DNA of 64,000 nt from Nereocystis luetkeana (taxonomy: Eukaryota; Sar; Phaeophyceae; Laminariales; Laminariaceae): NCBI GenBank assembly GCA_031213475.1, contig JARUPZ010000024.1, forward strand, positions 1,054,001-1,118,000, written 5' to 3'. The position numbers and the translations under genes are program-made. Below are positions 5,640 to 60,729 of this stretch, in pieces; the stretch's first letter is position 1, and every line of letters starts with the position of its first letter. The notes under the pieces were generated by a model. It worked only from the letters and a program-made list of their open reading frames with translations. It was not told where the DNA came from and did no database searches.

Positions 5640-5744
5640 ATGCCGATCGATATCAACATGTTCCGCACGGATCGCGGGGGCGATCCCGATGTGATTCGGG
5701 AATCGCAAAGGAGACGATTCGAGTCTCCCGATATCGTCGATACG
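5640..5744 (+). CDS. SARS1: SerRS exon 1 (start; residues 1-35)
   Basis: Starts with [19 protein letters not shown], the conserved eukaryotic SerRS beginning (D-x-F-R-x-D-x-GGDP), and ends DIVDT with donor ACG|GTGAGC, phase 0. This ATG is chosen because the conserved N-terminus begins exactly here. Confidence 0.93.
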
Positions 5745-11700: not shown

Positions 11701-14700
11701 TCTCGGAGGAACATTTTTTCCACCAAACAGGCCCCATAAGACGTGATTTTGATAAAATCTGATCAGATATGGGACCAGATACCCCGAAGCCTCCGTAAAC
11801 AGTCATATAACCACCTAAAACAAAATTGCATAAGATCCAGCCTAAGTCCACCTTTCCATAAACTTGCTATTTTGGCAAATAATTTGCCAAATATGTGTCG
11901 TTAGAAATGCCCCTACCAAGCCTACCAGCCAATCCAACCGACTCTCCAAGCCAATCCATCCAACCAATCCACCAATCAGCCAAATCAACCAACCAGCCAA
12001 TGTCTGACCAAGCCATCAACCAACCAGGCCACCAATTCAACCGATCAACCAATTTAACCATCACACAAACTCACCGACCGACCCTCAGGTGATAGACCTG
12101 GACACCCAGTGGCGCGACTGTCGCTCTCGCATCGACTTCCTGAACAAGGACAAGAACCGCTTCCAGAAGGAGGTAACCAAGGCAAAAAAAGCCGGTGGGG
12201 AGGACCCGGAGAACGCCGCGAAGATCATCGAAGTGGTAAAGGAGGTCAAGGTCGTGGAAGCCAGGTTGGGTGAGTTCTGCGTTAACTACCGTATACGACG
12301 GTGTATAATAGCACACCCCCGGTGATAGCATCTGGGGTTCTAAAAAAAACCTTACCACCCGTTGTGTTATACTCCGGGGGTGTGATATACAGCGTAACCC
12401 GGTGATAAATCGGGTGACGAGTTTTGGGATTTCGTAAGGCGTATCACCGGGGATGTGATATAATGGGTGTAGTAGCGGTGGTTGCAAAGGAGTTTGGCTG
12501 CCGCACTCCAAGCATGCAGGCGCGTGAGTGAAATGGGCGTGATATAAATTAGTGGTGGGAGGTTTTGCTGCCACACTCCAGGAAGGCGGCAAGGGGTGTG
12601 ATAACAAGGGGTGTGGTAGCAGTGGTTGGAGCTCTTGCTGCCAGCTTGTCCATCTGTTGTGGGGGCCTCAGCTGCAGATGCCGTGCTTGGCTTGTCTGTG
12701 GGATCTGCTGAGGGAGCCTCCGTACCAGACGCTTGCGCTGGCTTGACGGTGAGCTGTGCCGAAGGGAAAATATCAGTAGGCACGGGTGTGGTTGTCCGCG
12801 ACAAACACGCGATCGAGCCCTGAGTACCGGTAGCAGCAGTCGCTGGCGTCGAACAAGGGTCTAGCCCACTGGGACGGGCCACACGCTCGCAAGGCATTCG
12901 CACCTCCTCCACCTCTATGTTGCTGGTCTCCACCTTCTGCCGTGGTGCGCTCGCGCACCTGAGGGCACTGTGTGCTTACTCTCGTCACGATGTCACCTAC
13001 CTGGTGGGTGATGTCTTGGGGGTGTCATACTGAACATGGAGCATGACACCGCAGGGGGTGTGATATACAACCTACCCCCGTGATGAACCGGGTGGGTGTC
13101 TTGGGATTTCACTGTTTTTTTCACCCGAGTGGTATACTCCGGGGGGGGTGATATACAACGTATTGGGTGATATACACCGTCGTGTACGGTGTAGAGGTGT
13201 ACTTATTATCATGCGTGGCCGTAGTCTTATGACCATAGACCCTCGCATCGCTACAGCACGTCGGGACGGAGCACGTCGGGTTTTCACATACCAGGTAGAC
13301 ATTGCTTGCACCAAGCGCGAAGCGCCCTGAGGTGTTGGGCGAGTCGTATGAAGTGTGGGCTGCACCCTACTAAAAACCGCCTTTTAGGCGAATTTTCTTG
13401 CGTATGGATGATGACAGCGGCAATGAATTGTTTTTTTTCTGGTGTGGCCACTTCCAGAGACAGCATTGGATTTACTATGTAACCGCCTCGTGGGTGCGTT
13501 ACCGTATACACACTACGTCATACGACCATTCCACTTGTGCGGAGTTAAGGTTCTCCCCGCATAGAAATGATCTAACGCGACCACCAGCGGTGTTTATACC
13601 GCCACTAAATACAAAAAATGAAAAGGCTGGGGGGTGCCTGCTATGTGACCCCGGATCTGATTCACGACTATTAATACTGTAGGAGGGGAAGCAAGAAGGA
13701 CGAATATCATCAACGGGATGGAAAAAAAATCACACACACATAACACAAAAGCAGGGCGCTTTTAACTGGCCGTGACCCAACCCGCCGGTCGGGTCAGGAA
13801 GTTTTTGAAATCTCACGGGGTGGGCCGGGCCGGGTCGGGAGGCCTTCAAACTCTCACGGGTCGGGTCGGGTCACCGGGTCGGGTCGGGTCACCCATACTC
13901 AACCCAGCCCAACCCGACCCGCGAAGTTTGACCCGACCCGCGAGCAGCTCTGAAAAATGAACACGTACGAGTTATATCCCTGCTCACCAACCAAATGTGT
14001 ATTTTGTGAGATCGACTCGGTCTTGGCATTGCTTGATCTCTACCCCTCGCCTTGCGCTACTGGTCATAGTAAGCGGAATCCCCCCATCAGTCCTTCCAAA
14101 CTTCATCCATTTTTTATTACTTGGAAGTAGTATGGGACAAAAAAAAATCAGTGCTCAAAGTGTAATCGAAGGGTTGAACAAGCGAGCTGAAGCTCGCCAG
14201 ACACAAAACAGTCTTGTACGCAACAATCGATCTTATCATCAACGTACGTCTTGTGCGTGTGTGACTCGTACTCGCCTCCCTAAAGCCGAGCTGGGCCTAC
14301 AGGTGGCTAGGCTGCTGCCCAAGATCGGAAACATCGTTGCCAAGGACGTGCCCACTTCGGACGACGAGGAGAAGGACAGCATCGTCACGAGCACCTTCGG
14401 CCCTAACCCTTCGGGACAGCAGTACATGCACCACCACGAGGTGATAGGCGCTAACCCCCCGCTCCCCCCCGTCCCCTACCGAGAAAAAGTGTTCTGTAGT
14501 ATGTGGGAAAAAAGGTAGGGAGCGCCCAAATGTTGGAGGTGTCTCTACTAGGAGTAGGAACGGTGCTCCGTTTGCTCTGTCTTGAAGGGGATGCGTGTTC
14601 AAAGGTCGAATGACTAGGGCAAGCAACAAATGAGTACCCTCCCCTTTTCTTGTCTCGGAACGGGGTGCATGGTCAGGGGTCAAATGACTAAGGCAATCAA

Positions 14701-17700
14701 CAACTGCGTACACCCTCCCCCCCCCCCTCCCTACCGCCACCGATTCCTTAGGTTGATTGAATGTTGACCGGTTGCTTTGGAGCTAATCGGTCTGTTGGAA
14801 GGCGCTCGTTTTGTTAAGGTCAACGGGTCTGTTGAACATCAGTCGGTTCGTTGAAATTCGATAGGTAGAGCTGTGAAATAGCAGGATTTTACGACTAGTA
14901 TATAACCGGTAGGTTCCGTTAGCCAACTAACTGACTTAAACTGACAAATTGGTTTTTGCGACGCCAGCCGACTTGTCGACTCAAGGCAAGCGAGCGAAGG
15001 GAGCCAAATCGCCCCCCTCCCCGGCCATGGGGGCACCACCCAAAAACGAACAAATAATGTATCCCGCATAGAATAATCCTTCCTAAAAGTATGAAAACCC
15101 ATTAAGTCGGATAGTCGACACCTGCGGGAAACGACTGACTATTGGTCCGACTAGCAACTGGTTGGTAACTGACGTTGTGCCGACTCTCAGCTGAATATAT
15201 GGAACGCGCTATTATTCCCCTCTGCCGCCCCCACCTCAGTAAGTCCGTCGGAGGTCGATCGGTTGGTTGAACGTCAATGGGTTCGTTGAACTCCAATCGG
15301 TATGGTGAACGTCAATCGATTCGTTGAACTTCAGTGTGTTCGTGTACCGCCAGTCGGTTGATTGAATACCAATAAGTTCGTTGACCACCACTCGGTTCGT
15401 TCAGTGGGTTCGTTGAACGCTTCTCGGACCGACATCAATCAGTTTAGTTATAGTTGGACTCCGAGTTGGTTCGTTGACCGGCAACCGACTCATTGACAGC
15501 ATATCGGTTCGCCCTGCGTTCGATCGGCTCCATTGAGTCGGTGTTGCTTATTTATGCAGCGTACCGAGAGGAGCGCCTGAGACCGGAAGACACCCCCGAC
15601 CCCGCAAGACCGACCTCTTTCCGCGGAAGGGGTGGACGCTACCTGTTAGCCTTGGGCGCGTAGAGTGTTTAGCAAAAATATTAAACTCGGGAGTTTTTAA
15701 GTCAATACCGCCGTCTATCACACTAGGGTGATAGTACAACACACCTCCTCGGACGATTTTCAAAGCTGGGTTTCTCGACAGCGAGGATGGCGTACTGAAT
15801 ACGGCCAGCGATGCGTCTATCTATGCAACCTGCTCGACGAAACATTCACCAAATCCACCATGTTCGTTGTTTGTGCGCCCCCTTAACCCCTTTAGCACCG
15901 CACTCCCATATGTGGGGACAATTCACTCTAATTATAAGTAGTTTGTCCCCAAAACGGGACTGGGGTCCTAAGAGGGTTAAGGCATGTTTTGGAGGAAATC
16001 GGGTAAAAACATTTGTCTTTTAGAGGGTGTCTAATCTTATCACCCTATTACGGGGGGGGCATGTTAACTAGGACCTATGGTACACACAAACACATATGTG
16101 TTTTGCTATTTTTACTAACACTATTCGGTCCTATTAACTATGGTCCCCCGTAATAGTTTGATAGTGTTATGCGGTATATGTTTCGTTCGACTTTCGCACA
16201 GAACGTAGCGGATCTTTTTTGGTTTGCTGAGGTAAGTGTAAGCCAATTAGAGATCGGTCCGAGTTGGTGATTCTCAACCCTTTTGCGACTGCAGAGGGGA
16301 AAAACCCGGCGACTGCTGCATCGGCCACCGCGTGCGGTTGGGAGACTATTTACGGGGGACCTTAGTAAGTAGGACCAAATATTGTTAGTAAAAATAGGTA
16401 AATATATACCATGGTAGGTTTTTGTGTGTACCGTAGGTCCTGTTCACTATGGTCCCCCGTAATAACACCTCAGTTGCCGGCACTTTAATTCCTTGCGATC
16501 GCGCGACACGGGCGCCGCACGATATTTGCTGGTGTTGCTGGGTCGATAAACCCAAGCTTAAGCTTTTTTGTTTCGTTTTGTCGTTTTTTTCGAGGTCCCA
16601 AAGGTGTTTTAGAGTGATTTCGCGTCCTGTAGTGTTAAACATCTCTCCTCGGCTTCGTTCCTTCCCGTCGTAAAATCTGGTAGCATAGGGTTGTTTGTTG
16701 GGCTATTTTTTTTAGTCACTAATGGTCCAGTTTTGTTTCGTTGCTTCGTTACTTCGCAGTTTGTTGCTTTTTTGGTACCAAGTATATGTATTCATAGCTC
16801 ATTGTTTTTGACGAGTTTTGTTCAATTTGCTGTTGTGTTCTATAAAAGTTAGAAAAATGTGAGATCCAACATTTTCTCGGAACTCTCTTTTGCAATCTGC
16901 GTGGGGTACTTGGATCGCGCGTGCTATATATAACACGGAGCTCTTGTTTGTGTTCACTAATTTGTTTTTTTCATTCCTTCCTTTTGTTTTATGTTTATTG
17001 TTTTTTGTTTCCCCTTTTCTCTTTTTGTTTTTCCGTGTTTTTTGTAAAAAAAACAAAAAAAAGGTTTTGCACCGCATCGGCGGATACGAGCCGGAGAGGG
17101 GAGTGGGCGTGGCGGGGCACCGCGCTTACTTTTTGCGCGACGCCGGACTGCTCCTGAACCAGGCCTTGATCAACTACAGCATCGCCTTCCTCAGGAAACG
17201 GTGAGTGGCCTGTGTCCCTGCGGGCATGGAGACGCCCGTTTTCAGCATCTACGAAGTACTGTCCGCAAATACAAGGACCGTTTATGCATGTGTATTTTTA
17301 TAAAAGTGTTACTTATATTTTCGCACAGCATGATCCGTAAATACAAGGACCGTTTGCACATGTGTATCTTTATAAAAGCGATATTCATATTTTCGGACAG
17401 CATGATATGCTACACACTCTTCGGAAGCCGCGGTTCGACTCCTTGACCGACCGCCCCTCTCGAATAGAAGTACTTATGGCCTCTTGTACACCGCAATGGC
17501 CCCTCTACGAGTGTATTGCCGGTATGCGCCAGCCGGCAATACCGGCACGACGGCGGCAATCGGCACTATATACCCCGCGCACTGCCATACTTGTTAATCG
17601 CGTACCTGGTATGCGCCAAGCGCTTTCATCGGCACTACAGCAAGCAGCCGGCACTGTCATACTCAGCCGGCACTACTAGAGGGTCACGACAGATATAGGC

Positions 17701-20700
17701 CAAATAAGCCTTGGCTCGCATTTTCAGCCTAGTTTGATTATTGCCCTCCCCTCCATGTATCAACCATTGGTAAACCGCAACTTGTAACAGCCACCGCGAA
17801 CAACCATTGTTAACAACCATTGTTAACTGTCATTGGTACCAGCCATTGTGAACAACCAATGTTATCAAACCATTGTTCGGGGAAGCACGCGGTCTCGATG
17901 CCACCGCTCTTCAATATGGGAGGCGCCGCATGCCCATTTTCAAGCTTCGTTAACGACGAGCCCCCCCTTCATCACGACCCCCGTGTACCAACCATCGTTA
18001 ACAACCATCGTTAACAACCGTTGTTACTCAGGCAGTACTCGGTGTTGCAGCCTCCGTTCTTCATGACGAAGGATGTCATGGCCGGAGTGGCCCAGCTCGA
18101 GCAGTTCGACGAGGAGCTCTACAAGGTGCGGAGGCGGTTGTTTTTTTGCCGAGGGCTAAATACTAAACCTTGGCCCAGCTTCGCACGGACAAACTGCTTT
18201 ATATATGCCTTTGACCTTAGTCCCTATCCCCTCGTGACCCCAGCCCTCCTGCCGCCCTGGAGACTACCGCAATAAATACATCAACCATATGCTCACTGCG
18301 GACGGGTGCATATACCGTGCCCCAGTTTCGCGTCGAAAAAATGGTTGAAGCATACTTGACTTTTAGCTCTTGCCTTAACTATATCTCTGCCCCCCCCCCC
18401 CCCTCGAAGCTATCGTCCATTGCAAAAAAGTGCACATCAAAAGCGGTTCTTGGTATGTAGGATGCAGCTCACCCTTCATGCGACTCGCCCAACACCTTGA
18501 GTCGGTTTGCGGTTCGCGGTGGGTGCGAGCAGTCTATGCCTGGTCGGTGAAAACCCGATGTGCTCCGTCATTACTGCGTGAATACGAGTATCTACGGTCA
18601 CACGACTACGGCCATGGAGGACACGAGTATCCCCCCCCCCCCCCCCTCCGACTTCCTGGCGGATTTCTTCAAATTTAGATGAAATGAGGAATTGGTGTTG
18701 ACTCTCATCCAATTTTGTCGCAGCTGGGCCAAATCGTGAGCAGAGTTCGCCGCTTTTAGGAGAAAATGGTTGCACACACACTACTGTGTACCTGGTACGA
18801 TGCAGGAACAAAGCTGATCGATGTGTGTGTGTTTTTTTTGTATCCTTCCCGTTTGTTATCTCCGCCCCTCTTTTCCCTCTCCTCCTTCTAAATGAGAACG
18901 TACGGTACGCGCATCGCGTGCATTGTGCACTCGGGCGGCGGTTGGGGCTTGAGTTCTCGTCACCGTACCCTCAACGTACGGTGTTGTTGTGATGATACAG
19001 TCCTCGACGTTGTGACCATCAGGAAGGAATCTGGCCACATCCTTTCTTGGACCTTCTTGTTGTTGTTTCGTCTATTTTCTCAGTTACTTTCATCGCCCTT
19101 CTTTTCTCTCTCCTTCCTATTCCGGGGGGCATAGTAAATAGGACCAAATATGGTCTGTAAAAATAGGTAAACATACAGGTTTTTGTCTGTACCATAGGTC
19201 CTATTTACTATGCCCCCCCGCAATAGTCGTACCTCAGATCCGGGGTCACATAGCAGCCTCCCCCCTCCCACCGTGGTTCTTGCCTTCATTGGTCATATAT
19301 ATCGCGAGAAGACTTCAGCCATTTCTTCCCTCTATTTCAACTCGCGTCGATTGGGTCCGATTGGCTTATGGCCAGGGTTAGGCTTGATTCTATTCGTCTC
19401 ACACTCAGTGACCCTCAAACCATTTTCTTTATGTATGTGGTGAGTCGCCTGCCCCCCAAGGCGTTCGCGTTTCTGCCTAGATACCGATCGTGTGGGAACC
19501 TTCTCGTGGAAAGAAATACGTGAGGAGGGAGGGGTAATGACCAGGTATTTATCGGGGAGACTGTCCACCGCTTTCGTCCAAGCTGCTGGGCCAAGCCGTG
19601 AACATGAATTACTGCACGAAAACGCCGACGTATCCCTTTGGGGACTCCCATATTAAGCGCCCTAAAAAAAATGAAGGGAACAGCGAAGGGGGCAATTGAT
19701 GTCTCGACCCGGCTAGGGAAAAAAACGTGCTGCGGTCCGAGTACTGCTAAGGTGCGCGCGAGCTGCGCACAGCTTTTAGTTACTTGGCCGTTCTGACGCG
19801 CCCCGTACCCCAGCAAGCCAGGTTGCTTCATGCGGCTGCTGCTGTAATCGTGGTTTACTACAGTGATGATCCATAGATGTATAGTTCCGGTATCATATGC
19901 GCCGGCCAACAATACCAGCACTATAGCGGCAACCGGCACTATAATAACTACTCCGCACACTGCCACAATGGTTACTCCCATCTGTGCCAAGCGATTGCAC
20001 AGGCACTATATAGCGGGCTACTGGCACTACTGTATTTATCATGGTTTCCCTCCTAAGGGTCAGTTCCTTCCCCTTAATTTTGCACCAGACATGCGTCAAG
20101 ATGAGCCGAGTTTCGACGCCCCCCGCCTCCTCGGCCTTGTTTTTCGTGCGCGCGCGTGTCTGGTTCGGCTGGTTTGGCTGGTTGGCCAGGTTAGCGGAGA
20201 GGGCACGGAAGAGAAATACCTCATCGCTACCTCGGAGCAGCCTTTGTGCGCCTTCCACAAGGGGGAGTGGCTCAAGGAGTCCGAGCTTCCTCTCAGGCGA
20301 GCGATCACTACACGCATGGTTTCGACGGCTAGACAGTGACGATGATGGTGATTGGAACTTAGGTATATCTCATCATGTAGTGGGTACCCCCCGCTCATGA
20401 GAGCGTACGCTGAGGTATTGGTACAGTCGGGAGGGGCCGGGTTCGGCTGGACCCGCCTGCACCAAAGCCATAATATATTTTCCACTGTAGAAGAGAGAGA
20501 ACGGTAGTTCAGTCAAGATACGTACCATATGTGTTTTCGGCCTGCATGTACCACACGTCTTTTAACCTCTCGAGACTCCGGAGGGAAAATCTGACGATAC
20601 AAAATCGACGGTTACAGCAAAGGCTACCGCGTGATTGGCGGGTTACACAAAGTGGTCTCCGAGTTTTCAATTGGAAGGAGGCGTGCGGCACGGGTGCAAC

Positions 20701-23700
20701 ACGATCCCACTTGCACTGCTATTAATAGGCGCTGACGCTTGAATGGTTGACAGCACCAAAGTTACCAACCATTGTTACGGTCGCTATCTCTACACACCCG
20801 AAGGGGTTTGAAGAAGTCGGGGTACCAACTACAGTTAGTACCGTGTCTCATCTGCGTGATGAAAGTTTCGCCAACAAAAACAGGCTTACGAAAACGTCTC
20901 GATGAAAGAAGAGCTAAGCACCAGGTAACAGGATAGCACGTGCACGACAGTACATCCCGTTGCTGCGGGCGGTGGTCGCGGCCGAAGAAAGCAGACGCAC
21001 AACATAGCAGCACGTCGTAACAGCCCCCACGCGTAAGATGAAGGGCTGCGCACCACCCCACGAAGATCCTCCGGGGTGAACTTCCGATCCCTGCTTCTAC
21101 ACCAGGGCTGTGAATCGGAGCCGGTCCACCCACCCAACTATTCGGAGTGGTTTGAGTCGGATTTAGAATCGGCAAATCGGGACGGTTTGTTTTTGCCGGC
21201 ATAACATTGGCAAAATATCGGTAAATTATCGTTCCGATTTCCGTACTCGCCCTCATCAACTTTTTCGTGTTGTTTAGTAAAAAACTCGATTATCGTTCGA
21301 TCTCCACCTCTTCAGAATACAGGTTACCCCTTCATTTCGTGTAAATGGTTGATGCCTGGGTGAACGAACAGGGGGTTGACTCTGCCCTGCCGATGTTTGT
21401 TTCGGGCAGGTATGGAGGCGTGTCAACCTGTTTCCGGAAGGAGGCGGGGGCTCACGGTAAGGACACGTGGGGCATCTTCCGAGTCCACCAATTTGAGAAG
21501 GTGGAGCAGTTCTGCATTTGCGAGGGAGATCTGGAGAAGAGCTCGGCCATGCAGGACGAGATGGTGAGAGAGAGCCGCCCTGCTGGGTTAACACGCCGTA
21601 TTTATGTATCATGGCTGCTATTGTTAGTGTTAAGACACGAGACGATACTCAAAATCGATACGTACGCGATATGGGATTGTCGAGATGGCGAGTCGCCCTG
21701 CTCGGTCAACACGGCGTATGCATGAATCATACCTGGTTGTGTGGAAGGTGGGATGATAGTCGAGTTACGTTATGCGATACCGATGGGATACTGTGAGCAC
21801 AACACTAGTAACAACAGCAGCGGGTCGACCTGAGTACAGCAAAGCACAGCAAACGGTAACGACGAGTTCATGTTAGCACACGAAGAGCAACATACGAATA
21901 CTCCTCTACTCTACTCTGTTTGTAGCATGACCTCGTTTGTGCGCTTGCCCTACTGTGTGGTTGGCCGGTTGTGTCGCGCGCTCAGAGCAAGACGGCGGAG
22001 GAGTTCTACCAGAGCTTGGGAATATCGTACCGGGTGATAAACATCGTCTCGGGCGAGCTGAACAACGCAGCCATCAAGAAGTACGACCTCGAGGCGTGGT
22101 TCCCGGCGTATGAGGAGTTCCGAGAGCTCGTATCGTGCTCCAACTGCACCGACTACCAGGTGCGTGCCAAGAGTGTACAGCATTGCATCCATACCGTGTC
22201 CCTCTTTGCCTCTATTGCTCTTTTGCGTAAATTATTACGGGGGACCATAGTTAATAGGACCAAATACTGTTAGCAAAAATGGGTAAATATGTAGGTTTTT
22301 ATGTATACCATAGGTCCTCCTACTAACTATGGTCCCCCGTAATAGTCAATCCACACTAATACCTACCAGGTACCAGGTACCTGCTATGTACGTATCTCAA
22401 GACATTTTTGATTAACCAATCAATTGAATTAATCAAGTAAAGATATTGATTAATTATCAACAACCAAGTAGAGATTTCGGTTAATTAATCAAGTAAAGGC
22501 ATTGATTAATGGATGAAGTCAAGTCATTGATTCGTTCAATCAGTTTAATCAATTCAGCAGTTAATTTGATATCTCCCTACCCCTTACGCTGTGTGTCTGA
22601 TATGGGCTGCGAGCAGAAACAGATTGGCACGGCGGCGGGGGTTACTCTAGGTTGACACATGAAACCTACTGGTTCAATCTTGGTTCTGCGTGAAACTGTG
22701 ACGATCTTAACCCTTTTTTTTCGGGTTTTGTTACCCATCCGCCGGAGCTTCTAAAAATTGTGACCCCCCCCCCCCCTGTAAACAATGGAAACCCCGTAAA
22801 CAATCGGGCTCTATAGTATATACCATATTTATCGAAGATGGGTTACCTGCCGAATTTATCGGAAGGAGCAAACAATTGCAACCATAGTTGACGAATGCAG
22901 CCATGCCTCACGAGTACCACTACTACTACTACTACTATTACGGGGGGCCATAGTAAATAGGACCAACCATTGTTGGTAAAAATAGGTGAATATGTAGGTA
23001 TTTGTGTGTACCGTAGGTCCTGTTTACTATGGTCCTAACCCCGTAGTGTTTTATTGTACTACGTGTACATTCTGCTTGTAGGCGAGTATGCCTCGGCGGC
23101 TAGGGTGCAACGGTAGGCATGCGAGCAGTTCCGAAGGCTCGTTTCGTGCCCTGCGTGGTAACTGCACCAACTGCCGGGTGGGCGGGTGGATGCAAAGATG
23201 ATACGAGTAGAAGCCCGCGATTTTACCCCTCGACTGTCCGCCCCCTACACTAAAATGTACCTGGTACCTGGTATACAGTGACGCCAAAAGGCCTTGGCAC
23301 GAGACCGCGTTCGGACCTCTTGACTGACCGCCCGGTACACTAAAAACAGTATGGTTAGGTGAAGATAGGCTTTGACAGGAGACCGCGGTTTGACCCCTTG
23401 ACTGACCGTCCCTATACACGAAAAACAGCATAGTAACGCCGAAATAGGCCTTTTGGCAGGAGACCGCGGTTTGACTCCTTGCCTGACCGCCCGTTTACAC
23501 TAAACCAGTGTATTTAGGCCAAAGTAGGCCTTGACAGGAGTCCACGGTTTGACCCCTTGACTGACCGCTCCACCTACACTGAAAATGGCATGTTTAGTCT
23601 AAAACAGACCTTGACAGGAGACCGCGGTTTGACCGCTTGACTTACAGCCCGCATGCACTAAAACCAATACGTTTACGCCCAAATAGACCTTGACAGGAAA

Positions 23701-26700
23701 CCACATTTTGAATATTTGACTGACCGCCCCTTTAAGCTAAAACCGGTAATTTCACGCCAAAATAGGCCTCGACAGGAGGCCACGGTCTGACGCCTTGACT
23801 GACCGCCCCCACACTAAAAACAGTATATTTAGTCTACAATAGACCGTGACAGGAGACAGCGGTTTGACCCCTTGGCTGTCCACCCCCCACTAAAACTAGT
23901 ATAATAAGACCAAAGGAGACCTTGACGGGCCCAAAAAAGATGGAAGTACGGAGGTTGGGGGGTACATGTTGTTTGGGTCCATCGTGAGGTTCTGATGACC
24001 AGGCCCCGCCATTATCTCTCTCGCCGGACCTGAAAGTGGATAACAGGTTTCAAAATTAACGATAAAAAGTGACCGATCACGTATTTCATTAAGCGGCAAC
24101 TGTGCGATGGGGGCTTGACACGGATTGGTGTCTGGGTTAACGATGGTTGAAAACAAGGAGTCGTGCGGTACGGGGCACGGCTTGATCCCACCCGCACTTC
24201 TGCTAGGCGCTCACGCGCTGCTCGTAGGCGGCCGATAATACCCAAAGCTATTGTTAATAAAAAAAAACAGCTGTGAGGTCGAGGATTTGGTCGAAAACTT
24301 ATCATTGCAAGCTGTGTGCGACGATACTTCGATCGCGCGTATACTGCGGGCTTTATATAGTCTCATGCGCAAGAAGTACGGCCCGTTTATGAGGAAGACA
24401 AACTCTGAAGCTGCAGAATTCAAGGAGTGGGTGTCTTTATACTGGGAGAAAACCGTAAAAATGTACCAGGTATACCAGGTAGTTGTTTCGGTTGCGATTT
24501 CGGACGCCCGCGAAGGCGTTAGTCAAACCTTCTTGGGACTTGGGAGGGGAAAATGGGCGATAAAAATGACGATTTCAGCTACGGCCACTGCTTAACGTGA
24601 GGGGCTATACAATAGTTGGTACCAGAATCACAATGCGAGGGAGTCGTACGGTACGGGCGCAACATGGTCCTGCCCGTGCTCTTAGACGGTTCAATGGTTG
24701 ATAGCACCAGAGTTTACCAACCAGTGAAATGGCCGCTAGAAAAGGGGTTAGTGCCAAGGGGGTTGATACTAGGGTGCGCCAGTATGTACATTTGCTATAT
24801 GACGATGATTCGAGCGTGTCGTCGTGCATCCAGCTCCCCGCGTTGCCCGACGGACACGCCTCTTTTTTTCTTCCTCCTCGTGCTCTTCGTGGCGCGCTCG
24901 ATATGAAAAAACTTGACCCCTCGCTTTCAAGAGGAAATATTTATCGTGTGTTTTCCTTTGCGGAGTCGAGGCATGGAAGAGCTCTCCGAGGGCAAAACAT
25001 CATACAGCGTGTGATACCGGGCTCTGACTTGATTGTAGCGTTACGACGAAAGAAACGACGGGTGCGGGCGGTGCCGTCAAAGCGTCCAGGGTATTTATAG
25101 CGCGTGGCAGCGCGCGCTTGTCGCGCGTCTATCATGGCGTTGAATTCATGTCAGAACACCGCCGCCTCCGCCGCCACCGCCACCACCACCAACATTCACC
25201 GTTTTTTCTTTTCGCTGCGCAGAGCCGAGGCATGGAAGTGCGCTCAGGGCAGAAGAAGATGGGCCAGGGCGACAAAAAGTACGTGCACATGCTCAACTCT
25301 ACCCTGTGCGCCACCACCCGCACCATGTCGTGCATCCTAGAGAACTTCCAGACCCCCACCGGCGTCACCGTGCCCGAGGTGAGGAGCCCGCCCCTGCATA
25401 CGTATTGATAGGGGACAGGCAGTCCTTGCTTTTGCGGGGGCAGTGGCGGGGGTGTTCGTGTTTTGGGTGTGTGTTGGTGTTGTTGATGATGTTGGTGTGG
25501 GTGTGGGTGTTTGTGTTGATGTTGGCGTGTTGGTGTTGATGTTGGTGTGTTGGTGGCGTTGATGTTGGTGTTGATGTTGGTGTGTTGGTGGTGTTGGTGT
25601 AGGTGTGGTTGGTGTTGGGGATGTGCTGGCGTGGATGGTTGCGGTGGTGGTGGTGTGTGTTGGAGATGGTGTCGGTGATGGGGTGTGTGTGGGTGTTGGT
25701 GGGGGGGGTGTTGGTGATTGTGTTGGTGATGGTGTTGGTGATGGTGTTGGTGTTGGTGTTGGTGTTGGTGGATATATGTTGGTGGTGAGGGAGGGGTGGA
25801 TGGTATTACGGGGGACGATAGTTAATAGGACCTATGGTGTACATAATATAGAATATATACTATATATTTAGCCATATTTACTAACAATATTTGGTCCTAT
25901 GAACTATGGTCCCCTATAATAGGGTCGTTGTTGTTCACACCGTGGAGTTAAGCTGTCCACCACCCCCGATAACTGTGGTTCGCGCGAGCGTGGTTCGTGT
26001 CGAGGTGTCAGGGTCACGCGAATAGGTGGCAAATACGCACCTGGTACGGTATATCGAGGGTGGTGCTTGTGTGCCTATTAGCCTCGAGCCCGACAAACAC
26101 CACGTGTCACGTGCCGTCCTCCCTGGTGCCTGTTGTTGGCGGTTGCCATCCAGCATCTAGGAGGCCTTGAGCATGAGGGTTTTTCTTCCTCCTCCCCCCC
26201 CTCCCCCCCCCCCCGGCTTTGTCTCATGCCTTATCCTGTAGCTGCATGAGTCACCATCACCTACCCCTACGCCTACACCCAATATCAGTTCGAACCAAAC
26301 CAAACCACCCCAAGCCCAAAACCAAGACCCAAACCAAAACTACCCTCAGACTGCAAAAATACCCCCAGACTGCAAAACTACCCCGATAACCAAAACTATG
26401 CACCCGTCTCTCTCGAACAGGTGCTGGTTCCTTACATGGGGGGCATCACTTTCCTCGACTACGTGAAGGAGCTCCCTAAGGGCAAGCGAGAGGCCAAGGG
26501 GGCTACGAAGGGCGGGTATGCCTCCACAACAAAAGACCCCGCCGCCCCTGCCTCCACGGCCGCTGCACCCGCTCCCGCGGCTGCTACTCCTGCTCCTGGA
26601 GTGGCTAGCGCTAACGGGAGCGGGTCAACTGCGCGTGGGTTGCCTGAGGCTTCGGAGGCCGGGGCGGGAGGAGGGGGAGGGGGTTCCGAAGCGGACCTAA

Positions 26701-29493
26701 TCGGCGAAAAGATCGCCGCCAAGGTAAGCCGGTCGTTTTTCGTTTCGCTTTATTTTGTTTGTTTTAGTACGTGCTACCGATGTAGATCGTTGGACGAGTT
26801 GAATAGCGTGGTCGAAGCTCAGCTTTGCAAGCTGCGTGGTGCGTTGTACGTCGCCTTTTTTGCTTATTATTTTGTTTTTATTTTCTTCGTTCTTCGCTTC
26901 GGCTGGATTCGTTTCGCGCTTTTCCGTTCTGACTTGATTCTGGCGAACGTTCTCGGAAGGGTGTGTGCGGCCGAGGCCAAGCCAGATGAAACGGGGAGGG
27001 GGTGTTGTGTGACCGTCGGACGGGTGCGTACAAGCAGTGGAGCTTACCGCTCAATCGACGATATGGTTGACTCATACGGAGTACGGTATGAAGAGGAGTA
27101 GCCACAAAAGTTTGGTCAGCTGCGAGGGGGGCGGGGCTGGGGTCAGGGTTGCAGTGATTCTCGTATCGCCCTACAGTTGTGACCCCTCTGTACTGCCGGT
27201 GTGTGCAAGGTCAAAACAGCGGCAATATTGTATCGGGTGCCGGCATTATTCCCCGCGATGTCATGCTGGTTATTCCCGTCGTTGCCAAGCAGTTCCACCG
27301 GTACTATCTTGGGGACCGGCAGTATAAAGGGACCCTGGTTGTATAGAAAGAACCTCTACCATAGTGTCGGATACCTGGCACCTGGTACCAGGTACCTGGT
27401 ACTGGTATCTAATAAGGGACCCTCCATTGAACGCCGGAGGGTGTTGTGGCAACGTAGGACTTGCACCACTCTGTGAATACTTGACGTTGGACGGACCCTG
27501 CGCACAAGACGAACCAGACTTACCACAACCTGAACTCCAAACCTAATCTAAGGCAATCAAGCGCCACTACTTGGGCAATGAAAAAATACCACGTAGTTTT
27601 CCGAATAAGGATACTCGTACCTGGTACCTATTGAGCTTACTGACCAATCAACGTCACGTCGGTATTTAGGCCTCCGAATATGTGTCAAGTTCAATAATAA
27701 TGACTGCTTGACCAATACACGTCACTACTCGACCAATGGACTACAGTCGAACATCACTGCTGACCAATGACACTCGATGGAACATCTTTTTCTTGACCAA
27801 TGGAACTACATGACATACTTGAGCAAACACCAGGGTTTGGCCAGTAAGACTTAGTCAAACACTATTTGGTCTCCGAATAAGTGGTAGGCCCTGCTGTCGG
27901 CTACGGCCATGCATGGGATCGAGTACATATCTCCTACCGACACCCCCACCCACCCACCCCGCCCTCGTTTACGCCAATCCCGACAAGAACGAGGGCAAAA
28001 TATTACACACATTTGTTTCGGGTGGCTGCCCCCCCCCTTCCCCTCCGCCCTCCCCACCCATTTCCCCATTCCTCCTCACCGATCTTGACACAAAACAGGG
28101 GCTGGAAATCCGCGAGCTGAAGAAGTCCAAGCCGGACAAGGCGACCATTAAGCCCCACATCGACGCCCTTCTGTCCCTAAAGGCACAGTACAAGGACAAG
28201 GCCGGGAAGGATTATGCTCCCTCCCCAGCAGCAGCGGCAGCCCCAGCGGATTCTGGGGCGGCTTCAAAGAAGGAGGCGTTGTCGGGGGGAGGTGCTTCGG
28301 TCGCAGAGTCCCCTGCTGCCGCGGAAACGTCTGCCAAGATCGTCGCTAAGGTATGGTGTGGTTTGAGCAGGGCTATCCGTCGGATTTTCTCCCGTCATGA
28401 GAGTTGTGTTTTTTGGACTATTCTGTGTTCACCGTATACTTTTGGGACCTTCAGACGGGAAGGAATACACGAAGAAAGCTCCTGGCGTAGGAGGTGCACG
28501 CCCGAACTGCAATCAAAGGAACTGTAAGCGTGGGCAATGGCCAAATGGCTAAGGCAAGCAACGAATGAGTGCGCCCCCGCCCTCCCACTCACCCCCCACG
28601 CACCCCCTAGGGATGCGAGGGCTTATGGTCATACGACGACGACCATGCATGATAATGAGTACATCCCTCTCCCTATTCCTCGCCACCGTGCCTACCCAGG
28701 GGGAGGAGATCCGCGAGCTGAAGAAGTCGAAGGCAGACAAGGCCACGCTCCAACCCCACATTGATGCGCTGATCGCCCTCAAGACCCAGTACAAGGAGGA
28801 GGCGGGGAAGGCTTACGTGGCCCCAGGGGCGGTCGCGGCTGGCGCGAAGCCTAAGGAGCCAAAATCGGCGAAAAAGGCTCCCGCTGTGCACAACGCGGGC
28901 AAGAAGGGGTCTGCTGTTGCTAAGGGAGGGGATGCTAGTAGAGGTCTCCCCCCCCCTCCTGCGGCGAAGGGGCCGGTGATGGAGAATGGGAAGGCCAACT
29001 TGGAAAACCTTGCGCAGCATCTGGTGGCGTTTTCGTATGTGGCAGGTCAGTGGAAGTGGCGGGGGTGGTGGGGATGGAGGTGGGGGTGGCGGTGTGGACG
29101 GTGGTGGTCGTGGTGGTGGGGTGTTGTTGTTGGTCATTGTTGTTGTCGCTGATGGTATTCCGTCGATTCCTTCCCTGCCAACTCCCGGAACACGCCCCCC
29201 CCCCCTCCCTTCTGGCTAACATAATTTCACCTCCGCACCAAGTTGAAACATGCTCATGTGGCTCATTGCGGTTCCTTTCAAGCGGAAATAGTCCCACTTG
29301 GCTAATTAGACTACGCCAATAACAACCTCTCCACGATATCGCGCGGACGGCAGGATGGACAGCCGGAAAAGAGGACGCATGCATGTTTGAACTCCTGCAG
29401 GAGAACGCGGAGGCCAAGGCGCTGCCGGCTGTGGCGAGGTGGCTCGGACACATCGGCTCCTTCTCCGCGGGAGAACGAGCAGAGTGGCAATGA
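5640..29493 (+). CDS. SARS1: Seryl-tRNA synthetase with two WHEP domains and an EF1B/GST-like C-terminus (13 exons)
   Basis: Charges tRNA-Ser with serine in the cytosol. Exons: 5640-5744, 12089-12269, 14286-14440, 17064-17200, 18032-18125, 20190-20296, 21410-21563, 21986-22159, 25223-25378, 26421-26723, 28099-28350, 28700-29045, 29354-29493. All phases match and give 767 aa. Residues 1-147 form the N-terminal tRNA-binding coiled-coil arm. The class II core follows: the motif 1 region in exon 5, TSEQP in exon 6, motif 2 (FRKE to [10 protein letters not shown]) in exon 7, the eukaryotic SCSNCTDYQ segment in exon 8 and motif 3 ([12 protein letters not shown]) in exon 9. The core ends near residue 445. 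An Ala/Pro/Gly linker, WHEP-like domains at about 511-563 and 598-650, and an EF1B/GST-like segment at about 705-767 follow without a break. Human-type cytosolic SerRS ends at about 514 aa with a short basic tail. Intron 6 appears to use a GC donor. The core assignment is very secure; the domain names of the tail rest on motif reading. Confidence 0.95.
5745..7882. other. SerRS intron 1, first part, no gene recognised
   Basis: Intron 1 is 6.3 kb. This part carries several TACCAGGTA-class words (about 6185, 6385, 6800) and fragments such as CTATTAATAGG near 6604. An antisense fragment of the 80-bp satellite (CAAGGGGGTCAAACCGCGG) lies at about 5838-5856. Nothing protein-like stands out. Confidence 0.5.
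7883..8091. repeat. Direct tandem duplication, unit about 105 bp
   Basis: Two adjacent units beginning GCACCCACTA at 7883 and 7988, with only scattered differences. Each ends in AACACCCT. It is a recent local duplication within SerRS intron 1. Confidence 0.85.
8576..8745 (+). repeat. Interspersed repeat with decayed coding look, copy 1
   Basis: Similar over about 165 bases to 24268-24440, from AGCTGTGAG through GCAAGCTGTGTG to GCAGAATTCAAGGAGT. Copy 2 is open in one frame while this copy has stops, so it may be a degenerate copy of an unknown coding element. Confidence 0.6.
8746..10189. other. SerRS intron 1, middle part, no gene recognised
   Basis: TACCAGGTA words occur near 8947, 9078 and 9866. 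A short repeated phrase (ATATACCTCGAT followed by a GGCAGTATAAGC box) occurs twice at about 9908 and 9945, with a third GCAGTATAAGC near 10090. Confidence 0.5.
10190..10335. repeat. CCAACCAA-type low-complexity tract, left part
   Basis: Consists of CAACC/CCAAC words. A similar tract resumes at 11905-12075, on the other side of the element at 10343-11904. Confidence 0.65.
10343..11904. mobile_element. Possible non-autonomous DNA element with inverted ends (1.56 kb)
   Basis: The left end CTAACGACA (10343-10351) is mirrored by TGTCGTTAG (11896-11904). Just inside both ends lie TTGCTATTTTGGCAA segments, and a further TTTTTTGCTATTTTGG lies near 10972. Similar CCAA-rich sequence flanks both sides, as if the element had split one tract. 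No transposase is visible. A chance 9-bp match is possible, so the boundaries are tentative. Confidence 0.45.
11905..12075. repeat. CCAACCAA-type low-complexity tract, right part
   Basis: AACCAACCAATC-type words up to the pyrimidine-rich acceptor of SerRS exon 2. This is probably the continuation of the tract at 10190-10335. Confidence 0.6.
12089..12269 (+). CDS. SARS1: SerRS exon 2 (coiled-coil arm; residues 36-95)
   Basis: Encodes [20 protein letters not shown] and the following charged helix of the tRNA-binding arm. Acceptor CCCTCAG|GTG, donor TTGG|GTGAGT, leaving one base of codon 96. Confidence 0.93.
12270..13191. other. SerRS intron 2, first part
   Basis: A degenerate repeat of GGGGTGTGATATA-like and ACCCGGTGATA phrases runs from about 12290 to 13190, with inverted copies around TTTCACTG/TTTTTTTCACC. 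Frames of up to 188 codons on the minus strand (12367-12933) have repetitive composition and no recognisable domain. Confidence 0.5.
13192..13386 (-). repeat. Interspersed repeat family R3, full copy
   Basis: The minus-strand sequence matches copies at 18440-18632 and 42288-42473: it shares GATGCAGCTCACCCTTCATG-like, GGTCGGTGAAAACCCG and GGTCATACGACTACGGCCAT segments in the same order (inverted here). A TACCAGGTA word lies inside it near 13287. Confidence 0.75.
13595..13680 (+). repeat. SINE tail fragment
   Basis: Contains CTGCTATGTGACCCCGGATC, the complement of the tail of the SINE at 3456-3745. No tRNA-like head is visible, so it is probably a truncated copy. Confidence 0.5.
13762..13960. 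repeat. GGGTCGGGTC palindromic element
   Basis: GGGTCGGGTC runs on the left half are mirrored by ACCCGACCCG runs on the right half, around about 13880. A second element of this composition, with CAGGGCT/AGCCCTG ends, lies at 32052-32217. Confidence 0.6.
14286..14440 (+). CDS. SARS1: SerRS exon 3 (end of arm, start of core; residues 96-147)
   Basis: Completes Ala96 and encodes [20 protein letters not shown] up to MHHHE. Acceptor CTAAAG|CC and donor GAG|GTGATA, phase 0. An alternative acceptor CTACAG|GTG would break phase with exon 2. Confidence 0.9.
14441..16044. other. SerRS intron 3, first part
   Basis: Holds two copies of a CAAATGACTAAGGCAA-type phrase (14598-14640 and 14665-14715; others near 28530 and 41885) and a TCGGTTCGTTGAAC array at 14760-15545. 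Nothing gene-like is seen. Confidence 0.55.
14760..15545. repeat. TCGGTTCGTTGAACGTCAA degenerate array
   Basis: Short units such as TCGGTTGGTTGAACGTCAAT repeat about every 20 bases, clearest from 15235 to 15545 and weaker from 14760. Confidence 0.65.
16045..16156. mobile_element. MITE family M1, copy A
   Basis: About 110-bp element with inverted ends CTATTACGGGGG / CCCCCGTAATAG, then CATAGTTAATAGGACC-like subterminal sequence on both sides. Seven copies lie in this window. Confidence 0.85.
16346..16464. mobile_element. MITE family M1, copy B
   Basis: Left end CTATTTACGGGGGACC, right end GGTCCCCCGTAATA, with internal GGACCAAATATTGTTAGTAA and AAATAGGTAAATAT. It lies about 190 bp after copy A in the same intron. 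Confidence 0.85.
17064..17200 (+). CDS. SARS1: SerRS exon 4 (residues 148-192)
   Basis: Encodes [20 protein letters not shown] and [16 protein letters not shown], the entry into the catalytic domain. Acceptor AAAAG|GTT; donor ACG|GTGAGT, phase 2. Confidence 0.94.
17262..17406. repeat. Direct tandem duplication, unit about 72 bp
   Basis: Units begin TCCGCAAATACAAGGACC (17262) and TCCGTAAATACAAGGACC (17334), and each ends in CACAGCATGAT or GGACAGCATGAT. It lies in SerRS intron 4. A satellite-like CGCGGTTCGACTCCTTGACC fragment follows at about 17428. Confidence 0.85.
18032..18125 (+). CDS. SARS1: SerRS exon 5 (motif 1 region; residues 193-224)
   Basis: Encodes [20 protein letters not shown] and [11 protein letters not shown], the dimer-interface region with the conserved Pro of motif 1. 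Acceptor ACTCAG|G; donor AAG|GTGCGG, phase 0. Confidence 0.94.
18126..18439. other. SerRS intron 5, first part
   Basis: A C-run lies at about 18392. No feature beyond short low-complexity sequence. Confidence 0.5.
18440..18632 (+). repeat. Interspersed repeat family R3, copy
   Basis: Runs from AAGCGGTTCTTGG and GATGCAGCTCACCCTTCATG through GTCGGTGAAAACCCGATG to CACACGACTACGGCCATG. It is co-linear with 42288-42473 and inverted relative to 13192-13386. Confidence 0.8.
19117..19226. mobile_element. MITE family M1, copy C
   Basis: Ends CTATTCCGGGGGGC / GCCCCCCCGCAATAG, with internal ATAGTAAATAGGACC and GGTCCTATTTACTAT. It abuts a SINE tail fragment. Confidence 0.85.
19227..19355 (-). repeat. 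SINE tail fragment
   Basis: Shares CAGATCCGGGGTCACATAGC, a CTTCATT..ATCGCGAGAA segment and TTTCTTCCCTC with the SINE at 3456-3745, in the same orientation. The tRNA-like head is absent. Confidence 0.65.
20190..20296 (+). CDS. SARS1: SerRS exon 6 (serine-site TSEQ segment; residues 225-259)
   Basis: Encodes [20 protein letters not shown] and [13 protein letters not shown] plus two bases of Arg260. Acceptor GGCCAG|GTT. The only end that restores the conserved [13 protein letters not shown] reading is CTCAG|GCGAGC, a GC donor. Confidence 0.92.
20671..20815 (+). repeat. Interspersed repeat family R4, copy
   Basis: Similar to 24632-24765: a GTCGTGCGG/GGCGTGCGGCACGG start, then AATGGTTGACAGCACCA and TTACCAACCA, ending in GGGGTT. 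A shorter relative is at 24145-24225. Confidence 0.6.
21107..21260. repeat. Possible hAT-like MITE
   Basis: Left end CAGGGCTGTGAATCGGAGC resembles the end of the element at 32052-32217. The right end near 21250 (CGCCCTCATC) is only a partial mirror. AATCGGCAAATCGGG-type words fill the interior. Confidence 0.35.
21410..21563 (+). CDS. SARS1: SerRS exon 7 (motif 2; residues 260-311)
   Basis: Encodes [20 protein letters not shown] and [20 protein letters not shown], the class II motif 2 loop that contacts ATP and the acceptor end. Acceptor GGGCAG|G; donor ATG|GTGAGA, phase 0. Confidence 0.96.
21986..22159 (+). CDS. SARS1: SerRS exon 8 (serine-binding region; residues 312-369)
   Basis: Encodes [29 protein letters not shown] [13 protein letters not shown] and SCSNCTDYQ. 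The SCSNCTDYQ segment is diagnostic of eukaryotic and most bacterial SerRS. Acceptor GCTCAG|AGC; donor CAG|GTGCGT. Confidence 0.97.
22233..22345. mobile_element. MITE family M1, copy D
   Basis: TATTACGGGGGACCATAGTT / AACTATGGTCCCCCGTAATA, a nearly perfect pair of inverted ends. Confidence 0.88.
22400..22565. repeat. AT-rich ATTGATTAAT array
   Basis: Words such as TTGATTAATTA, AATCAAGTAAAG and GTCATTGATT recur through this AT-rich stretch of SerRS intron 8. Confidence 0.6.
22935..23047. mobile_element. MITE family M1, copy E
   Basis: Left end CTATTACGGGGGGCCATAGT. The right end is decayed (TATGGTCCTAACCCCGTAGTG). It is preceded by an ACTACTACT run. Confidence 0.8.
23207..23935 (+). repeat. 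Satellite array, about 9 units of about 80 bp
   Basis: The unit core GACCGCGGTTTGACCCCTTG, then ACTGACCGCCCC, TACACTAAAA and a GGCCTTGACAGGA box, recurs near 23213, 23303, 23383, 23462, 23542, 23621, 23700, 23780 and 23857. A solitary unit lies at 31803-31885 and an inverted fragment near 5838. Confidence 0.85.
24145..24225 (+). repeat. Repeat family R4, short copy
   Basis: GGAGTCGTGCGGTACGG followed by GATCCCACCCGCACTTC and a GCTAGGCGCTCACGC box, matching the beginning of 20671-20815. Confidence 0.5.
24251..24440 (+). repeat. Interspersed repeat with open frame, copy 2
   Basis: Counterpart of 8576-8745. One plus frame is open from about 24251 to 24595 and reads as a charged helical peptide (for example [19 protein letters not shown] and [14 protein letters not shown]). 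I do not recognise a family. It lies in SerRS intron 8 but does not fit the SerRS sequence. Confidence 0.5.
24632..24765 (+). repeat. Repeat family R4, copy
   Basis: GGGAGTCGTACGGTACGGGC then TCAATGGTTGATAGCACCAG, TTTACCAACCA and AAAAGGGGTT, co-linear with 20671-20815. Confidence 0.6.
24957..24995 (+). other. Partial mimic of the 5' end of SerRS exon 9
   Basis: GGAGTCGAGGCATGGAAG here differs by only a few bases from AGAGCCGAGGCATGGAAG at 25221-25238, and similarity continues weakly for about 15 bases. It could be a remnant of an exon duplication or chance. Confidence 0.4.
25223..25378 (+). CDS. SARS1: SerRS exon 9 (motif 3; residues 370-421)
   Basis: Encodes [20 protein letters not shown] and [20 protein letters not shown], with the motif 3 Arg of ATTR, ending GVTVPE. 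Acceptor CGCAG|AGC; donor GAG|GTGAGG, phase 0. Confidence 0.97.
25437..25795. repeat. GGTGTTGGTGATG minisatellite
   Basis: A strand-asymmetric G/T-rich tract of GGTGTT, GGTGAT and GTGGGTGTT units fills much of SerRS intron 9. Its translations are Gly/Val or Val/Trp runs without meaning. Confidence 0.85.
25804..25922. mobile_element. MITE family M1, copy F
   Basis: TATTACGGGGGACGATAGTT / AACTATGGTCCCCTATAATAG. The interior is AT-rich (ATATACTATATATTTAG), as in copy A's inverted orientation. Confidence 0.83.
26421..26723 (+). CDS. SARS1: SerRS exon 10 (end of core, linker, start of WHEP 1; residues 422-522)
   Basis: Begins [19 protein letters not shown], the normal end of the SerRS catalytic domain, then runs into an Ala/Pro/Gly/Ser-rich linker (about 450-510) and ends [12 protein letters not shown], the first helix of a WHEP fold. 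Acceptor CGAACAG|GTG; donor AAG|GTAAGC, phase 0. Confidence 0.9.
26724..28098. other. SerRS intron 10
   Basis: TACCTGGTA-class words cluster at 27371-27412 and near 27615. Phrases of the type TGACCAATxxACGTCA or TTGACCAATGGAC repeat loosely from 27640 to 27830. No gene is seen. Confidence 0.5.
28099..28350 (+). CDS. SARS1: SerRS exon 11 (WHEP 1 helices 2-3 and linker; residues 523-606)
   Basis: Encodes [20 protein letters not shown] and [19 protein letters not shown], the WHEP signature (I/VRELK then LxxLKxxY then G). A second Ala-rich linker follows, and the exon ends ETSAKIVAK, which starts the next WHEP helix. Acceptor AAACAG|GGG; donor AAG|GTATGG, phase 0. Confidence 0.9.
28529..28662 (+). 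repeat. Repeat family R3 fragment
   Basis: CAAATGGCTAAGGCAAGCAA then a C-rich stretch, then GATGCGAGGGCTTATGGTCA and ATGCATGATAATGAGTAC, the same order as at 41881-42030. It lies in the short intron between the two WHEP exons. Confidence 0.65.
28700..29045 (+). CDS. SARS1: SerRS exon 12 (WHEP 2, linker, start of GST-like domain; residues 607-721)
   Basis: Encodes [20 protein letters not shown] and [19 protein letters not shown], nearly the same as exon 11 and with the same intron position and phase. After a Lys/Ala/Pro linker it ends [18 protein letters not shown], which resembles the start of the EF1B GST-like fold (LxxHLxxxSYVxG). Acceptor ACCCAG|GGG; donor GCAG|GTCAGT, phase 1. Confidence 0.88.
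29354..29493 (+). CDS. SARS1: SerRS exon 13 (GST-like C-terminus; residues 722-767)
   Basis: Completes Gly722 and reads [20 protein letters not shown] then [23 protein letters not shown] and TGA. The pattern SYVxGxxxxKxDxxxF...hxxxxRWxxHI is that of the EF1B-alpha/beta GST-C-like module. Acceptor GGCAG|GA. The region around the stop codon is the first unit of the tandem array at 29440-30560. Confidence 0.86.
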
Positions 29494-60618: not shown

Positions 60619-60729
60619 CTATTACGGGGGACCATAGTGAATAGGACCAAATACGGTTAGGAAAAATAGGGGAATATATAGGTTTTTGTGTGTACCGTAG
60701 GTCCTATTTACTACGGTCCCCCGTAATAG
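60619..60729. mobile_element. MITE family M1, copy G
   Basis: CTATTACGGGGGACCATAGT / ACTACGGTCCCCCGTAATAG, the best-preserved ends of the seven copies. It is the only copy outside the SerRS gene. Confidence 0.9.

What the first reader, a model, noticed from the sequence alone, without database searches (positions are those of the whole stretch)
26421..29493. Seryl-tRNA synthetase extended by two WHEP domains and an EF1B/GST-like domain
Seen: exons 10-13 continue the SerRS frame in phase through a linker, two WHEP-like motifs ([13 protein letters not shown], then LxLKxQYK) and a terminal SYVAG...KEDACMFEL...ARWLGHI segment. Known: WHEP domains are appended to GluProRS, MetRS, HisRS, GlyRS and TrpRS, and GST-like modules to MetRS, GluProRS, ValRS, CysRS and EF1B, where they bind RNA or build multi-synthetase and elongation-factor complexes. 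Human-type cytosolic SerRS ends soon after the catalytic core. Inference: this lineage may tether SerRS to an eEF1B or multi-synthetase assembly through an added tail. I know of no described SerRS with this arrangement, but I could not search.
Basis: partly seen in the sequence, partly recalled or inferred. Interest (0 to 1): 0.88.

Follow-up and report, generated by a model that had tools for sequence, protein, structure and literature searches.

The report
Algal seryl-tRNA synthetase with docking tail
The enzyme that loads serine onto its transfer RNA in this alga carries an extra tail of two RNA-binding-type modules plus a docking module resembling a translation elongation factor subunit; the docking module also occurs in several groups of photosynthetic relatives of brown algae and may plug the enzyme into the protein-making machinery.

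Summary
Confirmed. A 13-exon gene (5640-29493, +) encodes a 767-aa seryl-tRNA synthetase whose frame continues through two WHEP domains into a terminal 66-aa domain. The same layout occurs in Undaria, Pylaiella, Chrysoparadoxa and Nannochloropsis. The terminal domain has no Pfam hit on its own. A profile of eight such tails finds first, in the PDB, the N-terminal domain of human eEF1B-alpha solved with eEF1B-gamma (5DQS, E 7e-13), ahead of AIMP3 and GSTs. A relative's tail models as a GST_C-type helical domain, a fold that does not single out eEF1B. 62 of 121 SerRS rows nearest to this one carry the tail, with 0, 1 or 2 WHEPs; 9 of 9 named oomycetes lack it. On a rooted tree of 55 chosen rows, 36 of 43 rows in the clade holding the seven included named ochrophytes have it. 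Seven searches aimed at it listed no such SerRS; a 2024 domain table names SerRS for neither domain. Best reading: an ancient ochrophyte docking module, probably for eEF1B-gamma or another GST-like translation protein. Binding is inferred. The window's genome could not be searched.

The parts
5640..5744 (+). exon 1 of SerRS, start codon and first 35 aa (no targeting extension ahead of it)
   Evidence: matches the N-termini of P0001 and P0003
12089..12269 (+). exon 2, SerRS N-terminal tRNA-binding arm
14286..14440 (+). exon 3
17064..17200 (+). exon 4
18032..18125 (+). exon 5
20190..20296 (+). exon 6, followed by a GC donor
21410..21563 (+). exon 7, catalytic core
21986..22159 (+). exon 8, catalytic core
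25223..25378 (+). exon 9, end of catalytic core
26421..26723 (+). exon 10: last core residues, A/P/G-rich linker, first residues of WHEP 1 (from about 26700)
28099..28350 (+). exon 11: rest of WHEP 1 (to about 28221), linker, first residues of WHEP 2 (from about 28327); 252 nt, phase 0-0
28700..29045 (+). exon 12: rest of WHEP 2 (to about 28822), K/A/P-rich linker, first part of the terminal domain (from about 28985)
29354..29493 (+). exon 13: rest of the eEF1B-type GST_C-like domain and stop codon TGA

Best explanation
The gene encodes the cytosolic-type seryl-tRNA synthetase of what is, by its nearest relatives, a brown alga, with an inherited C-terminal docking arm. Shown: an uninterrupted SerRS reading frame, two WHEP domains on low-complexity linkers, and a terminal domain whose family profile is closest, among solved structures, to the N-terminal domain of eEF1B-alpha. 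Inferred: the terminal domain makes a GST-GST-type contact with a partner, most likely the N-terminal GST domain of eEF1B-gamma (the partner of eEF1B-alpha's N-domain in 5DQS), next most likely a GST-like scaffold or synthetase of a multi-synthetase complex. The WHEPs would add tRNA/RNA affinity or further contacts, and charged Ser-tRNA would be passed to eEF1A from a complex rather than by free diffusion. SerRS is a dimer (established knowledge), so two tails would make it bivalent.
Confidence: 0.6

Rival explanations
1. The tail docks SerRS into a multi-synthetase complex through another GST-like protein (an Arc1p/p43/AIMP3 relative, MetRS or GluRS) rather than into eEF1B.
For: AIMP3 is the second PDB family (6e-6); Arc1p_N_like is the nearest Pfam model, matched by 4 of 8 tails, and it also covers the human eEF1B-alpha fragment (31.3 bits); GST-like domains drive such complexes in yeast and Toxoplasma (passages of PMC4394549 and PMC3930741).
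Against: Sequence is closer to eEF1B-alpha (51.7 against 29.5 bits). I recall no described ochrophyte complex.
Confidence: 0.25
2. The WHEPs are the working part (RNA or tRNA binding) and the terminal domain only stabilises the protein or pairs with the second tail of the SerRS dimer.
For: WHEPs are more conserved than the tail (71-73% against 43% in Chrysoparadoxa). Dimerisation is common for GST folds (established knowledge).
Against: The tail persists where no WHEP was detected (21 of 121 rows; for example P0022-P0024).
Confidence: 0.12
3. Gene-model artefact: exons 11-13 belong to another gene.
For: No transcripts of this alga were available; introns are long and repeat-rich.
Against: Same fused protein in independent genomes, and core plus tail in four MMETSP transcript proteins; phases fit and WHEP 1 is itself split across exons 10 and 11.
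Confidence: 0.02

Closest known systems
eEF1B-alpha (elongation factor 1-beta) N-terminal GST-like domain, PDB 5DQS
   Same: The tail profile's best solved relative, aligned over 5-63 of 66 profile positions; shared Y..G, D and RW..H positions in the printed alignments.
   Different: Here it is the C-terminus of a synthetase; no exchange domain follows it.
Human CysRS (CARS1) splice variant and ValRS, synthetases with GST-type domains that contact eEF1B
   Same: A synthetase carries a GST-type domain tied to the elongation-factor complex (passages of PMC9166799 and PMC4394549).
   Different: N-terminal, in animals, class I enzymes (class recalled); here C-terminal, class II SerRS, ochrophytes, often combined with WHEPs.
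WHEP-bearing synthetases (GluProRS, MetRS, HisRS, GlyRS, TrpRS; plant AsnRS)
   Same: Above-threshold WHEP-TRS domains, here in tandem.
   Different: SerRS is not listed for WHEP or GST in the 2024 domain table (PMC11580382, passage).
Vertebrate SerRS with UNE-S; plant and human SerRS C-terminal extension
   Same: A SerRS with a C-terminal addition (PMC3359775 and PMC7564348, passages).
   Different: The passages describe a unique motif or an extension and mention no WHEP or GST-like domain on SerRS.

Membership tests
Seryl-tRNA synthetase (eukaryotic cytosolic) | SerRS N-terminal arm plus class II core | tested here: met
   PF02403 and PF00587 above cut-off; TIGR00414 serS 440 bits against cut-off 302 in Undaria orthologue P0001, whose core is 96% identical to the window's
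WHEP-TRS domain | Pfam profile above curated cut-off, two stretches | tested here: met
   99.2 bits against 32.5, 2 stretches
WHEP-TRS domain | Helix-turn-helix hairpin fold | tested here: met
eEF1B-alpha-type N-terminal GST_C-like domain | Closest sequence family among solved structures | tested here: met
   5dqs_D 7.4e-13 with the 8-row profile; with the window's linker plus tail (121 aa) as single query E 0.026, best hit
eEF1B-alpha-type N-terminal GST_C-like domain | GST_C-type helical fold | tested here: inconclusive
Pfam Arc1p_N_like (GST-like; also covers eEF1B-alpha) | Score above curated cut-off | tested here: not met
   0 families for the window tail; best of 52 relatives 25.4 bits against 27; human eEF1B-alpha fragment 31.3. 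The protein database's precomputed column does list PF21972 for P0017
eEF1B-alpha-type N-terminal GST_C-like domain | Binds eEF1B-gamma GST domain | not testable with these tools
   no complex prediction or binding data
eEF1B-alpha protein | C-terminal guanine-exchange domain | tested here: not met
   the protein ends with the GST_C-like domain (residue 767); no such Pfam hit at E up to 1
Canonical glutathione transferase | Thioredoxin-like N-terminal half | tested here: not met
   no GST_N Pfam hit at E up to 1; most of the stretch before the tail of P0007 has pLDDT under 50
Multi-synthetase complex component | Co-purifies with other synthetases | not testable with these tools
   none

The most novel reading that the evidence does not exclude
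In the common ancestor of ochrophytes the cytosolic SerRS captured the eEF1B-alpha docking domain and became a constitutive arm of the eEF1B complex, so that Ser-tRNA is handed directly to eEF1A across brown algae, eustigmatophytes, pelagophytes and chrysophytes; WHEP copy number (0-2) tunes RNA binding by gain and loss of a symmetric exon.
Probability: 0.4. Interest if true: 0.75.

Novelty: new variant of a known kind. Interest (0 to 1): 0.62.

Why it matters
Human SerRS is counted among the synthetases outside the multi-synthetase complex (PMC9166799, passage). A conserved eEF1B-type docking domain on SerRS in ochrophytes would be an independent case of coupling a synthetase to the elongation factor complex, in the group that includes kelps and Nannochloropsis. 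It gives a specific, easy test (SerRS tail against eEF1B-gamma) of tRNA channelling outside animals, and a natural series of tail and WHEP gains and losses.

Tried and rejected
Considered and rejected: separate downstream gene (same fusion in independent genomes and in transcripts); chance similarity of the tail (shuffles); a canonical GST (no N-terminal half). A 36-nt repeat in the introns before exons 11 and 12 was not used as evidence of duplication; I suspected a dispersed repeat but did not test it. Tail absence in database rows is weak evidence where the protein may be a fragment; of 59 rows without a tail hit many are unnamed metagenome proteins, so only the named oomycete proteins (9 of 9 without it) are pressed. 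The 121 rows are the listed best of a capped search, so 62 of 121 is no census. The 49 tails were picked with a profile that included the window tail, so that control is not fully independent. The 55 rows of the careful tree were chosen by me: 37 of the 62 tail rows, 17 of the 59 rows without, and the plant row; rows that looked truncated were mostly left out. In the quick tree of all 121 rows the deep forks were weak. Diatoms: no row named as a diatom appeared among the 120 listed of 7980, so their state is unknown.

Literature: ten searches, seven of them aimed at SerRS with such domains. Of the 21 papers that hold both 'seryl-tRNA synthetase' and 'WHEP domain' I opened five, by 'find' only; the other 16 were seen as listing. 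Eleven papers in all were opened, passages only; none was read whole.

Full report
What is there. A plus-strand gene spans 5640-29493 in 13 exons. All introns are GT-AG except the one after exon 6, which is GC-AG. The spliced product is 767 aa. Pfam finds the SerRS N-terminal arm, the class II core and two WHEP-TRS stretches, all above their cut-offs. The Undaria orthologue passes NCBI's serS equivalog cut-off, and its core is 96% identical to the window's, which is why I call the source a brown alga. The protein starts directly with the SerRS arm, so a cytosolic enzyme is the natural reading (inference).

The fusion is real. Using the last 338 residues as query, 16 proteins were returned, from a capped set of candidates. 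Undaria (label Undpi1, 760 aa), Pylaiella (753 aa), Chrysoparadoxa (735 aa) and g10317.t1 (unnamed; groups with the brown algae) carry SerRS, two WHEPs and the tail in the same order; eight of the 16 are other WHEP proteins, such as GluProRS types. A search with the tail of P0009 returned five proteins, the query included, all SerRS with the same layout, among them Nannochloropsis gaditana. Identity between window and Undaria is 96% in the core, 86% and 94% in the WHEPs and 82% in the tail; the linkers are at 73%, 51% and 83%. Against the more distant Chrysoparadoxa the WHEPs (71-73%) exceed all linkers (46%, 29%, 35%), while the tail at 43% does not stand clear of linker 1. Of six MMETSP transcriptome proteins in the set four carry the tail, which puts core and tail on one mRNA in those species.

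What the tail is. On its own the window's 66-aa tail matches no Pfam family. With the linker before it (121 aa) its best PDB match is eEF1B-alpha at E 0.026. The tail of relative P0009 alone reaches 4.9e-7 with the same chain. A profile of eight tails (window, P0001, P0002, P0003, P0005, P0007, P0009, P0014; the last three of unnamed origin) reaches 7.4e-13 with that chain, then AIMP3 (6e-6), delta GSTs (9e-4) and the EPRS GST domain (0.4). That chain, 5DQS chain D, is human eEF1B-alpha in complex with the eEF1B-gamma GST-like domain (title; PMC7160314, passage). A profile from 49 SerRS tails outside the brown-algal and eustigmatophyte kin gave 65.4 bits for the window protein and 54.3 bits for the human fragment; the best of the shuffles scored 9.9 and 12.0 (10000 made, 9141 scored). 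A profile of five PX-clade tails gave the human fragment 36.3 bits, best shuffles 11.4 and 7.8. The 49 had been collected with a profile that included the window tail. Pfam's Arc1p_N_like, a GST-like family, is the nearest Pfam model: 14 of 52 relatives match at E up to 0.1, the best at 25.4 bits against a cut-off of 27, and the human eEF1B-alpha fragment itself scores 31.3. So the tail belongs with the translation-associated GST_C-like domains, nearest to eEF1B-alpha.

How far it reaches. A search with the core returned 7980 proteins, of which the best 120 are listed. Of the 131 proteins held after all three searches I set aside 11 (eight other synthetases or WHEP proteins, two partial SerRS without most of the core, and the plant row), leaving 120 plus the window protein = 121 SerRS rows. 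The tail (E below 1e-5, my profile) is in 62: 21 with no WHEP, 31 with one, 10 with two; 59 lack it, 7 of these with one WHEP. These rows are the nearest to the window, not a census. Tail-bearing rows with a name: Phaeophyceae (Undaria, Pylaiella), Chrysoparadoxa (PX clade), Eustigmatophyceae (Nannochloropsis gaditana), Pelagophyceae (Chrysophaeum, Pelagophyceae sp. CCMP2097, Aureococcus, the last with a partial match) and Chrysophyceae (Ochromonas danica) (names; lineages of six species looked up; Aureococcus as pelagophyte is recalled). All 9 named oomycete proteins end after the core. On a careful tree of 55 rows chosen by me (37 of 62 tail rows, 17 of 59 others) and rooted with a plant SerRS, one clade (98/97) of 43 rows holds the seven named ochrophytes included; 36 of the 43 have the tail. 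The eight oomycete-clade rows (100/99; six named, two unnamed) lie outside it without the tail. One unnamed tail-bearing row, P0100, lies outside both. The simplest history is one gain before the ochrophyte radiation with later losses; P0100 hints at an earlier or second gain. Parsimony needs 5 changes, at least 3 by starred branches. In the quick tree of all 121 rows the deep forks are weak. Rows P0022-P0024, which group with the brown algae (99*), have the tail but no WHEP detected.

How the WHEP number can change. WHEP 1 and 2 are 33 of 49 residues identical; both are split by a phase-0 intron at the same place (after KIAAK and KIVAK, before G), and the exon starts form a 119-nt direct repeat at 78%. 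Exon 11 is 252 nt, phase 0-0, so its loss or skipping would leave one complete WHEP in frame (inference).

What it probably does. eEF1B-alpha's N-domain is solved bound to eEF1B-gamma. In animals, ValRS needs its GST-like domain to bind eEF1B (PMC4394549, passage), and a CysRS splice variant with an insert in its GST region is tied to EEF1G (PMC9166799, passage). The same kind of module at the end of SerRS suggests docking on eEF1B-gamma or a GST-like scaffold, with the WHEPs adding RNA or protein contacts. None of this binding was tested; PMC4394549 cautions that sequence does not reliably predict such complexes.

Novelty. Seven searches of the held library aimed at this listed no paper whose title, abstract start or opened passages describe a SerRS with WHEP or eEF1B-type domains; most listed papers were not opened. 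The 2024 AARS Online table lists GST in CysRS, GluRS-E, MetRS, ValRS and WHEP in GluRS-E, GlyRS-E, HisRS, MetRS, ProRS-A, TrpRS (PMC11580382, passage); SerRS is in neither. The library misses most subscription papers. The WHEPs are flagged in the protein database's precomputed Pfam column, for example for the Nannochloropsis protein; the terminal domain and its spread seem undescribed. It is a new variant of a known kind: a synthetase with appended docking domains.

Limits. The window's own genome could not be searched (16 unanswered calls, listed under Tried and rejected), so eEF1B subunits and any second SerRS of this alga are unseen. No row is named as a diatom.

Noticed in passing
29440-30533: 47 nt at the end of the coding sequence recur in 3 more places and 35 nt across the stop codon in 4 more, at 60-87% identity to their reference copies and about 180-450 nt apart: a degenerate array in the presumed 3' UTR that begins inside the coding sequence.
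   Followed up: partly
16357-16455, 19126-19216, 22945-23035, 25813-25912, 60629-60719: A short inverted-repeat element with arms near GGACCATAGTTAATAGGACC: 12 arm matches with up to 2 mismatches (0 expected by shuffles), of which ten form five facing pairs spanning 91-100 nt; looks like a MITE-type element.
   Followed up: partly
53139-53801 (+): Open frame with an MBOAT acyltransferase match (E 2e-25), probably an exon of another gene.
   Followed up: no
20296/20297: GC-AG intron after SerRS exon 6.
   Followed up: no
P0002 (eukprot g10317.t1): A SerRS model that groups with the brown algae runs on after the tail into ankyrin repeats; possibly two gene models joined.
   Followed up: no
P0063: A protein labelled Ectocarpus fasciculatus (partial) is only 67% identical to the window's SerRS core and groups away from the brown algae, so it may come from another organism in the sample.
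   Followed up: no
P0100: An unnamed SerRS outside both the ochrophyte-holding and oomycete clades also has the eEF1B-type tail, which bears on when the tail was gained.
   Followed up: partly
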